Positions 1-36,018 of a DNA stretch of 64,000 nucleotides are shown in pieces. This DNA comes from Methanogenium sp. MK-MG (GTDB taxonomy: Archaea > Halobacteriota > Methanomicrobia > Methanomicrobiales > Methanomicrobiaceae). The translations under genes were made by a program, and so were the position numbers. The notes under the pieces are model-generated. The model had not been told where the DNA came from. It saw nothing but the letters and a program-made list of their open reading frames with translations, and made no database searches. How positions within the stretch are numbered: position 1 is the first letter of the stretch; every line of letters starts with the position of its first letter. The stretch lies in NCBI RefSeq assembly GCF_009914725.1, contig NZ_JAAAWJ010000001.1, positions 1 through 64,000 on the forward strand, given 5' to 3'.

Positions 1-83
1 CACCTACAGGTATCAAGTGCTACATTCAGTCGTGTCTCTGCAACTGGATTTGGATATGCACGATACTTGTAGGATACTATCAT
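1..83 (-). pseudogene. TnpB N-terminus, cut by window edge
   Basis: Reading the minus strand from an ATG at 83 gives a peptide beginning MIVSYKYRAYPN and continuing into an ETRLNVALDTCR stretch. This matches the start of IS605-type TnpB proteins, where a K/RYR.YPN..Q motif leads into ..CR..YN. Only about 27 codons are inside the window, so it cannot be judged whether the gene is intact. Its start follows directly on the stop of a TnpA fragment (TGA then ATG), the usual tnpA-tnpB order of IS200/IS605 elements. Confidence 0.6.
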
Positions 84-236
84 TCATTTCTCCATTTGGA
101 AATTCACATAATGTTTCAGAACATCAGGACTAACCTGTCTGGATGTTGTAAGGAAATATGAGGGAGAACATAACCCATCTCCCCACAACAACTTTATGGT
201 TGCAGGATACTCCTGACGCAATTTGCGTGACGATAC
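84..236 (-). pseudogene. IS200-like TnpA (Y1 transposase) C-terminal fragment
   Basis: On the minus strand this stretch reads through a KLLWGDGLCSPSYFLTT-type segment and ends VNFQMEK followed by a stop. The LW....WSPSYFV..G pattern is typical of the C-terminal part of IS200/IS605 single-strand transposases (REP-type Y1 fold). The frame meets a stop just upstream, near the stem-loop at 259-317, so the catalytic HUH and tyrosine regions are missing and the gene is broken. It sits immediately before a TnpB start on the same strand. Confidence comes from the short but characteristic motif and the genetic context. Confidence 0.6.
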
Positions 237-258
237 ACAATATAATTATCGTAGCGAG

Positions 259-317
259 GAAGGGGCTCTGCTTTCATCCCCGGCCTGAAGACCGGGGACT
301 TCCCGCTCTGCCCCTTC
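259..317. repeat. IS605-type terminal stem-loop remnant
   Basis: A strong stem (CCCCGG at 278-283 with CCGGGG at 292-297) is nested inside outer arms (GAAGGGGC at 259-266 with GCCCCTTC at 310-317). Read on the minus strand, a GGGAAGTCCCC..GGGG pattern resembles the right-end/omega-RNA hairpin of other IS605 elements in this window, but with a different tail. It is probably the end of another element inserted into the TnpA gene next to it. Confidence 0.5.
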
Positions 318-462
318 ACCCCGCAAGTTAAATTTTATAAGGAAAGCGTAAAACCCCCTGGTCTTTAGCCAAGGGGATGTAAGCGTAAATTTGTAGATTT
401 CACCACTCAGATATTGCAATATGGATAAAACATATATTTTGTCAGGTAGTATATTAACCGGC

Positions 463-34290: not shown

Positions 34291-34502
34291 ATGGTCTGCC
34301 GTCCGATGTAATGTCCGCCGGTGCTTATGCAGGCGATGAAGAGGACGATTGCTGCAATATATGCATATGGTGCCGGAAGCAGAACGGGCAGCAGAACAAC
34401 AGCTGCAATCAGCACAATGAGGCTTGTGATGGCTGTTACACTGTCAAGGACGACGGGTTTCATCTGAGTATATTCTCTGTCGTGACGTAAATGTCTATTC
34501 AT
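34287..34502 (-). CDS. Small two-helix membrane protein
   Basis: A probable 71-residue protein starting MNRHLRHDREYTQMKPVVLD, with two hydrophobic stretches (VTAITSLIVLIAAVVLLPVLLP and YAYIAAIVLFIACIS) and a polar tail GGHYIGRQTI. A shorter start, MKPVVLD, is possible. No family is recognised. The frame stays open further upstream to 34709, but that part is antisense to the ThiN-like fragment and lacks coding character. It overlaps the priL stop by 4 bases on the other strand. Probably a real small membrane protein. Confidence 0.5.
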   Translation of the reverse strand: MNRHLRHDREYTQMKPVVLDSVTAITSLIVLIAAVVLLPVLLPAPYAYIAAIVLFIACISTGGHYIGRQTI

Positions 34503-34547
34503 CCCCTGCAATCTCCTTAAACAATCTGAAAAACCGATATGTTCTGT

Positions 34548-34706
34548 ATGCAGACCCGCAAAGAGGTGGCCGCAGCCCTGTGCGAGGCAGCCCTCATCAT
34601 AAGGAAGGCCGATCCGCGATTGATCCCGGACGGGGGCATCAGCATGGGCTATGCCCTCCCCGGTGCCGGCACGCAATATTATTATGCTCTCGGGTTGCAT
34701 TGGCCG
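34548..34706 (+). pseudogene. ThiN-like domain protein, truncated by IS605 derivative
   Basis: The first codons read MQTRKEVAAALCEAALIIRKADPRLIPDGGISMGYALPGA. The LIPD.G.....YALPGA pattern resembles the start of ThiN-type thiamine-phosphate synthase domains found in archaeal regulators and ThiDN fusions. Beyond GA, another frame gives RNIIMLSGCIGRKES, suggesting a shift, and the IS605-derived element begins at about 34,709 and supplies the stop. The 3' part of the gene is absent on the far side, where rps17e begins. Family assignment is tentative; that the frame is interrupted is clear. Confidence 0.45.
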
Positions 34707-34708
34707 CA

Positions 34709-34931
34709 AAGAAAGTGCGTAAATCCCCCTGGTCTTTAGTCAGGGGGATGTAAACGTTTGCTTTCATGGGCATAAATTAAGTATTTGTAATACTAATAAG
34801 AGGGAACCTGATTACGAGATCCAAGTAATCATTTCACCTTCGGAACGAGGGGAAGGGCCTGTGGACTAATGGAGAATACTCCGGAGAATGAAGCAGGAAG
34901 CCACTAAGTCTTTGGCTTTGTGGTAGTTCAC
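34709..34931 (+). mobile_element. TnpB-less IS605 derivative (MITE/PATE-like)
   Basis: A 223-base element with both ends of the family found at 341-1672. The left hairpin is at 34725-34747 (CCCCCTGG-tctttagt-CAGGGGG in context GCGTAAAT..GATGTAAACG). The right part 34835-34931 matches the tnpB-distal 97 bases of the full element and ends GGTAGTTCAC. About 85 internal bases replace tnpB. It sits between a broken ThiN-like frame and the start of rps17e, only 12 bases from the rps17e ATG. Confidence 0.8.
34835..34931 (+). ncRNA. Putative omega-RNA in TnpB-less element
   Basis: Conserved with 1576-1672: CACCTTCGGAACGAGGGG, GGGCCTGTGGACTAATG, a short GGAGAATACTCC stem, GAAGCAGGAAG, and a terminal hairpin at 34901-34923 whose arms differ from the parent element by several base changes. 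The guide predicted from the flank would read AGGAGCATCTGAATGG, that is, the ribosome-binding and start region of rps17e. Confidence 0.5.
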
Positions 34932-34943
34932 AGGAGCATCTGA

Positions 34944-35135
34944 ATGGGAGTCAAACCAACGTACATTAAATCACTGGCCCAGGAATTGATCGTAAAGCAC
35001 GGCAGCCGGTTCACCGGAAATTTTGATGAAAACAAGTGTGCCGTTTCTGAAGTGGCAATTATCGACAGCAAACGCATCAGAAACCGTGTGGCAGGCTATA
35101 TCACGAGAAAGGTAAATAGAAGGAAAGAAATATAA
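34944..35135 (+). CDS. rps17e: 30S ribosomal protein S17e
   Basis: A 63-residue archaeal S17e. It starts MGVKPTYIKSLAQELIVKHG and contains the conserved FTGNFDENK and SKRIRNRVAGYITRKV, ending in a basic tail. It is a structural protein of the small subunit found in archaea and eukaryotes. AGGAG at 34932-34936 is the ribosome binding site and directly abuts the IS605-derived element, so the gene has lost its native upstream region. It begins the rps17e-dapA-dapB-ferredoxin-asd series and ends 7 bases before dapA. Confidence 0.93.
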   Translation: MGVKPTYIKSLAQELIVKHGSRFTGNFDENKCAVSEVAIIDSKRIRNRVAGYITRKVNRRKEI

Positions 35136-35142
35136 TCCTTTT

Positions 35143-36018
35143 ATGTTTGAGGGCGTTTATCCTGCACTTATCACTCCGTTCGAAGATACCGCTGACGCGG
35201 GCCTGAATCTTTTGGGTCTTCGCGCCAACATTGAGTATCTGATTGAAAACGGAGTGCACGGGGTTGTGCCCTGTGGTTCAACCGGTGAGTCAGCAACACT
35301 GACATTTGAAGAGCATGAGATTGTCATTGGAGAGACAATTGATGCCGTCAATGGCAGGGTGCCGGTCGTTGCCGGTACTGGTTCAAATAATACCGCCGAA
35401 GCCCTGCGATTTACCAAATCCGCATCAGATCAGGGCGCGGATGCGGTGCTTGTTCTTTCTCCGTATTACAATAAACCGAACCGTTCCGGTCTTATTAAGC
35501 ATTATACCAGAATCGCAGATATTGGCGTCCCGGTCATCATATACAATGTGCCTTCCCGTACTGGCCAGAACCTGACGCCTGACCTGATCACCGAACTGGC
35601 CGCCCACCCGGGCATCGTCGGTGTCAAAGAGGCGAGCGGCGACATCAACCAGATATCAGAGATCATCGAAGGGACCCGTGACAAGGACTTCTCGGTCTTC
35701 TCCGGCGATGATGCAATGACCCTGCCCGTGCTCGCACTGGGCGGCGCCGGTGTGATTACGGTTACGGCGAACGTTGAACCCGCGCGGTTTGTCGCCCTCT
35801 ATGAGCGCTTCCGTGCGGGCGACTATGCCGGTGCACGGGATATGCATTACGAACTGTCCCCTCTGATGCGTGCCCTCTTCATCGACACCAACCCCATTCC
35901 CGTCAAGCGGGCCGTCGGCATGCGGGGCATGGCCGCAGGACCCCTGCGCCTGCCGCTTGACTCCATGACAGACGCTGCAGAGGCAGAGTTAAAGGAGGTG
36001 TTGTCCCGTTATGACTAA
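35143..36018 (+). CDS. dapA: 4-hydroxy-tetrahydrodipicolinate synthase DapA
   Basis: A 291-residue TIM-barrel aldolase. FEGVYPALITPFED opens the barrel, GVVPCGSTGESATLT carries the pyruvate-binding loop, YYNKPNRSGL and YNVPSRTGQNLTP hold the catalytic tyrosines, and GVKEASGD has the Schiff-base lysine. It condenses pyruvate with aspartate semialdehyde, the first committed step to lysine. It overlaps dapB by 8 bases and lies in one operon with asd, which makes its substrate. Confidence 0.94.
   Translation: MFEGVYPALITPFEDTADAGLNLLGLRANIEYLIENGVHGVVPCGSTGESATLTFEEHEIVIGETIDAVNGRVPVVAGTGSNNTAEALRFTKSASDQGADAVLVLSPYYNKPNRSGLIKHYTRIADIGVPVIIYNVPSRTGQNLTPDLITELAAHPGIVGVKEASGDINQISEIIEGTRDKDFSVFSGDDAMTLPVLALGGAGVITVTANVEPARFVALYERFRAGDYAGARDMHYELSPLMRALFIDTNPIPVKRAVGMRGMAAGPLRLPLDSMTDAAEAELKEVLSRYD

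What the first reader, a model, noticed from the sequence alone, without database searches (positions are those of the whole stretch)
34709..34931. TnpB-less IS605 derivative with a preserved omega-RNA, parked 12 bases before rps17e
The 223-base element keeps both terminal hairpins and the 97-base RNA-like 3' region of the TnpB element at 341-1672, but tnpB itself is gone. The RNA region is conserved apart from changes in stem arms. Its putative guide is the Shine-Dalgarno and start region of rps17e. An intact TnpB is 33 kb away and could act on this RNA in trans. Such a guide could protect the element's own site, or act as an RNA regulator of a ribosomal gene. Internal AT-rich bases may now supply the rps17e promoter.
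Basis: partly seen in the sequence, partly recalled or inferred. Interest (0 to 1): 0.75.

Follow-up and report, generated by a model that had tools for sequence, protein, structure and literature searches.

The report
RNA-only transposon in a ribosomal-gene leader
A 223-base piece of DNA in front of a ribosomal-protein gene of a methane-making archaeon is a tiny mobile element that carries only a guide RNA and no protein gene; it belongs to a small family of such RNA-only elements and now looks stuck in place, where its RNA is probably made as the start of the ribosomal gene's message.

Summary
Window 34709-34931 is a protein-free IS200/IS605-type element (left hairpin, AT-rich interior, extra 5' hairpin, 97-nt omega-RNA scaffold, right end TTCAC) 12 bases before rps17e. 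It is not the 341-1672 element minus tnpB. It belongs to an RNA-only lineage: seven other copies in this genome, about ten in a Methanogenium relative, single copies in a second genus. Its extra hairpin covaries and is absent from 18 tnpB-element right ends examined. The omega fold is conserved by covariation. Five of seven Methanogenium genomes show the empty site TTTAT|A, which proves insertion and motif; one relative shares the rps17e insertion, most likely from one old event. The element sits inside the rps17e 5' leader: a promoter-like block just upstream is conserved in 25 of 26 family genomes, including this one, and is lost only in the relative that also carries the element. "Guide protects its own site" is not supported here today: the TTTAT motif has decayed, a 2-nt deletion shifts the guide, and no motif-plus-guide target exists in the genome. 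Regulation of rps17e through TnpB is untested speculation. Best reading: a PATE-like element that kept a full omega-RNA, now immobile and tolerated as a leader.

The parts
34674..34686 (+). Native rps17e promoter-like block (CAATATTATTATG), upstream of the element
   Evidence: AATATT[AC]TTA[TA] lies 53-60 nt before the rps17e ATG in all 24 family genomes without the element at this site, 269 nt before it here, absent only in G005; kept here although the upstream ORF is deleted and out of frame
34704..34708 (+). Position of the ancestral TTTAT insertion motif (TAM), now CCGCA
   Evidence: Five empty-site relatives read TTTAT|A at this point; other copies are preceded by TTTAT or close variants
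34709..34931 (+). RNA-only IS200/IS605-type element (whole)
   Evidence: Alignment of copies and empty sites
34717..34757 (+). Left-end hairpin, loop GTCTTTAG
   Evidence: Fold z = -4.7; shared with tnpB elements at 346-386 and C59
34771..34791 (+). AT-rich TATA/BRE-like box, candidate internal promoter
   Evidence: Best score AAGTATTTGTAAT at 34779, top 0.2% of the window; a comparable box (top 1%) in the other copies with an intact left end. Consensus match only
34809..34831 (+). 5' hairpin specific to RNA-only copies (TGATTAC...GTAATCA)
   Evidence: 3 of 7 pairs with compensatory changes in 12 copies; motif only in RNA-only elements, 4 of 199 order genomes
34835..34931 (+). Omega-RNA scaffold with stem 1, pseudoknot, stems 2-3 and guide-proximal stem; right end TTCAC
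   Evidence: Covariation and pseudoknot counts; model score 110 bits
34932..34947 (+). Putative 16-nt guide = rps17e leader with AGGAG Shine-Dalgarno and ATG
   Evidence: Position next to the right end; guide length by analogy with ISDra2 TnpB (PMC8612924); not tested
34944..35135 (+). rps17e
   Evidence: Pfam PF00833
463..1575 (+). Intact TnpB gene, possible trans partner
   Evidence: Pfam and PDB matches, RuvC residues aligned to 8bf8

Best explanation
The element is a non-autonomous, RNA-only IS200/IS605 element (a PATE that kept a complete omega-RNA). Steps 1-2 rest on sequence comparison; steps 3-4 are inferred. (1) It inserted after a TTTAT motif at the stop codon of the ThiN-domain gene upstream of rps17e, 14 nt before the rps17e start codon; empty sites in relatives show this. 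(2) It belongs to a lineage that spread as RNA-only copies with their own 5' hairpin, so it must have used a TnpA in trans. (3) While mobile, its omega-RNA, with the right flank as guide, loaded into a TnpB in trans and had the re-formed TTTAT site cut, so that excised copies were restored. (4) At rps17e it is now immobile (motif lost) and lies in the 5' leader; its omega-RNA is made as the front of the rps17e message, from the native promoter in this genome and probably from the element's own box in the relative that lost the native one. In this genome it is most likely a tolerated leader insertion whose protective role has lapsed.
For: Family of RNA-only copies in own genome and a relative. 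Empty sites TTTAT|A in five genus members. Omega fold kept by compensatory change, and a pseudoknot in the ISDra2 position with 98.7% of cells paired (architecture in PMC10097598). RNA-only hairpin with covariation, absent from 18 tnpB-element right ends. Three intact cognate TnpBs. One intact TnpA whose element has a similar left hairpin and the same GGTAGTTCAC right end. Native promoter-like block conserved in 25 of 26 genomes. The copy shared with G005 has 53/58 identical interior bases and an AAGTGC left end not seen in other copies, against 68% identity at four-fold sites.
Against: No transcript data. Trans use of TnpA and TnpB is inferred from similarity. The two rps17e copies are split over the species tree (G000 and G005 carry it, their sisters G001 and G003 do not), so two independent insertions or a transfer are not excluded. 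The omega halves of the two copies have different nearest relatives (G005 copy 93/97 to another G005 copy), which suggests gene conversion and weakens any claim of selection in place.
Confidence: 0.72

Rival explanations
1. The omega-RNA at rps17e is still an active selfish guide: TnpB in trans cuts element-free alleles of this locus in the population, driving the element to fixation.
For: Intact TnpBs and an intact scaffold. In G005 the guide matches the sister genome G003's empty TTTAT site in 14 of 16 positions, the first ten all matching.
Against: In this genome the guide start is shifted by a 2-nt deletion and matches the comparable empty alleles at only 4-5 of 16 positions; the left motif is lost, so excision is unlikely, and there is no TTTAT+guide site in the genome.
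Confidence: 0.1
2. The element has been taken over by the host as the rps17e leader: its box supplies the promoter, and TnpB binding or an alternative fold of the omega-RNA hides the Shine-Dalgarno and tunes rps17e.
For: G005 lost the otherwise universal promoter-like block. The AAGTATTTGTAAT box is identical in both rps17e copies. With the guide included, CCUGUGGACU pairs with AGUUCACAGG and covers part of the SD.
Against: Native block intact in this genome. Leader fold z = -2.6 only. The alternative pairing uses bases that hardly vary, so there is no covariation support. Sister species do without the element.
Confidence: 0.1
3. A dead fossil: no functional RNA is made or used; conservation only reflects recent descent or gene conversion from mobile copies.
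For: Motif decayed in both carriers; G005 left hairpin has mismatches; omega half chimeric.
Against: It lies downstream of a conserved promoter-like block, so some transcription is expected, and the scaffold pairs as in mobile copies.
Confidence: 0.2

Closest known systems
PATEs (palindrome-associated transposable elements) of Haloquadratum walsbyi (PMC3119063) and the PATE-like copy of Halanaerobium hydrogeniformans (PMC7290912)
   Same: No coding gene, near-terminal palindromes related to IS605 ends, no target duplication; the Halanaerobium copy keeps the last 58 nt of tnpB and the whole right end
   Different: Here a full omega-RNA with pseudoknot and an added covarying 5' hairpin is kept through a multi-copy lineage; both papers predate the discovery of omega-RNA guides
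ISDra2 TnpB omega-RNA/reRNA (PMC8612924, PMC10097598)
   Same: Stem 1 whose loop pairs with the UUC near the guide (pseudoknot), guide-proximal stem with UUUA-type loop, guide from the right flank, motif at the left flank
   Different: TTTAT instead of TTGAT; scaffold about 97 nt; encoded without tnpB
Haloarchaeal sotRNAs / omega-RNAs (Rfam RF02656, RF02657; PMC12558985)
   Same: Archaeal IS200/IS605-associated RNAs at the tnpB 3' end
   Different: No Rfam match here even at E<=1; no overlapping tnpB
TldR (nuclease-dead TnpB regulators; PMC13418256)
   Same: RNA-guided control of a host gene is the analogue of the regulatory reading
   Different: The TnpBs here have the RuvC catalytic residues, and no motif-flanked guide target exists in the genome

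Membership tests
PATE / non-autonomous IS200/IS605 element | Too short to code for a transposase or TnpB | tested here: met
   No ORF of 45 aa or more inside
PATE / non-autonomous IS200/IS605 element | Near-terminal palindromes related to IS605 ends | tested here: met
   Left hairpin and right end shared with tnpB elements and similar to the tnpA-bearing C67 element
PATE / non-autonomous IS200/IS605 element | Insertion 3' of a fixed motif without target duplication | tested here: met
   Empty sites TTTAT|A in five relatives
PATE / non-autonomous IS200/IS605 element | Copies at several unrelated sites | tested here: met
   Seven other RNA-only copies in own genome, about ten in G005
PATE / non-autonomous IS200/IS605 element | Mobilised by TnpA in trans | not testable with these tools
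   One intact TnpA with similar ends; transposition not assayed
TnpB omega-RNA | Conserved scaffold fold with covariation | tested here: met
TnpB omega-RNA | Pseudoknot between stem-1 loop and bases just before the guide | tested here: met
   98.7% of cells paired, mostly invariant
TnpB omega-RNA | Bound and used by TnpB | not testable with these tools
   Scaffold 79-82% identical to those of the three intact own tnpB elements
TnpB omega-RNA acting as retention guide at this site | Motif-flanked target matching the guide exists (own genome or empty alleles) | tested here: not met
   No TTTAT+guide site in this genome; guide shifted relative to comparable empty alleles
TldR | RuvC active site lost | tested here: not met
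   D/E/D residues aligned with ISDra2 TnpB

The most novel reading that the evidence does not exclude
An RNA-only lineage of IS605 elements that parasitises TnpA and TnpB in trans has been turned, at rps17e, into a leader RNA: TnpB bound to the nascent omega-RNA covers the Shine-Dalgarno (the guide) and so ties ribosomal protein synthesis to the cell's TnpB level.
Probability: 0.05. Interest if true: 0.85.

Novelty: new variant of a known kind. Interest (0 to 1): 0.45.

Why it matters
It shows omega-RNA inheritance uncoupled from tnpB: a lineage kept the RNA fold, has its own hairpin and a promoter-like box, and spread without a protein gene. That makes trans use of TnpB a testable prediction in archaea. 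The rps17e case also gives a natural experiment within one genus, with empty, filled, promoter-intact and promoter-lost alleles.

Tried and rejected
Rfam scan of 34500-35200: no match even at E<=1. Exact omega pattern in viral contigs and similarity search in phages: none; plasmids gave only two Methanosarcinaceae omega-RNAs, one next to an annotated tnpB. The idea that the element derives from the 341-1672 copy was rejected: its scaffold is closer to the C24 and C97 copies (88 and 87 of 97) than to that copy (79%), and it has a hairpin that tnpB copies lack. 'Guide protects the site' was rejected for this genome. In the first scaffold alignment some rows were on the wrong strand; it was discarded and redone. 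A likely literature precedent (Meers et al. 2023, on TnpB and non-autonomous copies in Geobacillus, from memory) is not held and was not read, so the degree of novelty is partly uncertain.

Full report
OBSERVATION. It has a strong left hairpin (z -4.7), an AT-rich interior, a second hairpin at 34809-34831 and a 97-nt right region ending in TTCAC. No ORF lies inside. The genome search gives 16 matches. They come from three intact tnpB elements (C1, C59, C56; TnpB 79-100% identical), one with only the last 54 codons of tnpB (C3), and RNA-only copies. Of the RNA-only copies, C97, C14, C75 and the rps17e copy have both ends; C24 and C64 lack the left part; C125 is interrupted; C94 is a degenerate solo scaffold.

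IDENTITY. An exact 26-base scan for the interior sequence shared by the two rps17e copies hit a Methanogenium MAG contig of the same length (40470) as G005 contig C48, so the genus is Methanogenium (the genus label of the window follows from the shared genus group g1). The relative G005 has about ten RNA-only copies, six of them more than 92% identical over their length, i.e. recently spread. Single RNA-only copies occur in two genomes of a second genus (G011, G016). These copies share a 5' hairpin with a CGA[GT]AACCAAG-like loop. Three of its seven pairs change in a compensatory way in a 12-copy alignment. A strict pattern for it is found only in RNA-only elements and in 4 of 199 genomes of the order; the right ends of 18 tnpB elements examined lack it. 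This points to an old RNA-only lineage rather than repeated loss of tnpB.

RNA. In 26 scaffolds (with and without tnpB) 97.5% of pair cells are standard pairs; slid controls give 33-54%. 42 cells have both sides changed against 14.5 expected from shuffles. A three-pair pseudoknot between the stem-1 loop (GAA/GGA) and the UUC before the guide is paired in 98.7% of cells, as in the ISDra2 structure (PMC10097598); it is nearly invariant, so it is consistent with, not proved by, covariation. A covariance model (R1) finds the RNA in 49 of 199 genomes of the order. Rfam has no matching family.

INSERTION AND HISTORY. Five of the seven genus members have an empty site, e.g. ...CCAGTTTAT|AGAGGAGTATCTGA-ATG. 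The motif TTTAT ends at the stop codon of a ThiN-domain gene upstream (Pfam PF10120 in G006). The window holds 229 TTTAT sites on both strands, so a second independent hit on the same site is unlikely but possible. The rps17e copies of G000 and G005 are closest to each other in the interior (53/58) and share an AAGTGC left end that no other copy has. Yet G001, sister of G000, and G003, sister of G005, are empty (tree). The simplest readings are one old insertion with two clean excisions, or a later transfer; I favour the first. Four-fold sites between G000 and G005 are 68% identical, so the interior is better conserved than neutral sites. The omega halves of the two copies, however, have different nearest neighbours (G005 copy 93/97 to G005_C42; G000 copy 87-88/97 to C97 and C24), which suggests gene conversion, so I do not claim selection in place.

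PROMOTER. A block AATATT[AC]TTA[TA] lies 53-60 nt before rps17e in all 24 family genomes without the element at this site. In this genome it is kept, 269 nt before the ATG, although the upstream gene has lost about 330 nt and the block is out of its old reading frame. It is therefore very likely the rps17e promoter, and the element sits in the 5' leader just downstream of it. In G005 alone the block is gone (ACGATTCGTATG), so there the element's own AT box (AAGTATTTGTAAT, identical in both copies), or read-through, must serve. The box is a consensus match only.

FUNCTION. When mobile, such an element would be moved by TnpA in trans; one intact TnpA is present, in an element whose right end has the same AATGAAGCAGGAAGCC...GGTAGTTCAC. 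Its omega-RNA could load into TnpB, which is known to trim the 5' side of its RNA (PMC10278001) and is proposed to cut motif-flanked donor joints (PMC8612924). At rps17e in this genome that role has lapsed: the motif is CCGCA, a 2-nt deletion shifts the guide (4-5 of 16 matches to the comparable empty alleles of G001, G003 and G006), and no TTTAT+guide target exists in the genome. In that comparison the script mis-placed the site in G002, and the site of G004 is one base shorter, so these two are not counted. The G005 guide still matches the G003 empty site at 14 of 16 positions.

LIMITS. No expression or binding data. Trans activity, leader transcription and any effect on rps17e are inference. 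An alternative fold that pairs CCUGUGGACU with AGUUCACAGG and hides part of the SD is possible but has no covariation support.

Noticed in passing
window 1-332: A degraded IS200-like tnpA remnant (Y1_Tnp positions 70-120 with a stop) that recurs in several other contigs of this genome and in G005 at 84-94% identity: a separate repeated tnpA-fragment family.
   Followed up: partly
window 34539-34700: The ThiN-domain gene upstream of rps17e has lost about 330 nt here compared with G001, leaving only its start and the promoter-like 3' block.
   Followed up: partly
window 34674-34686 and L062-L067, L120-L138: A promoter-like block for rps17e nested in the 3' end of the upstream gene, conserved in 25 of 26 family genomes including third codon positions.
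   Followed up: yes
L202 (Methanosarcina barkeri plasmid, 2501-2597): An omega-RNA match downstream of an annotated tnpA with no annotated tnpB in between; may be an unlisted or broken tnpB.
   Followed up: no
window 34858-34867 with 34925-34934: CCTGTGGACT is complementary to AGTTCACAGG; the 2-nt deletion after the right end creates the full 10-bp match and covers part of the rps17e Shine-Dalgarno.
   Followed up: partly
L028 left end (G005): Left-end hairpin of the G005 rps17e copy has two mismatched pairs while its omega scaffold pairs normally.
   Followed up: no
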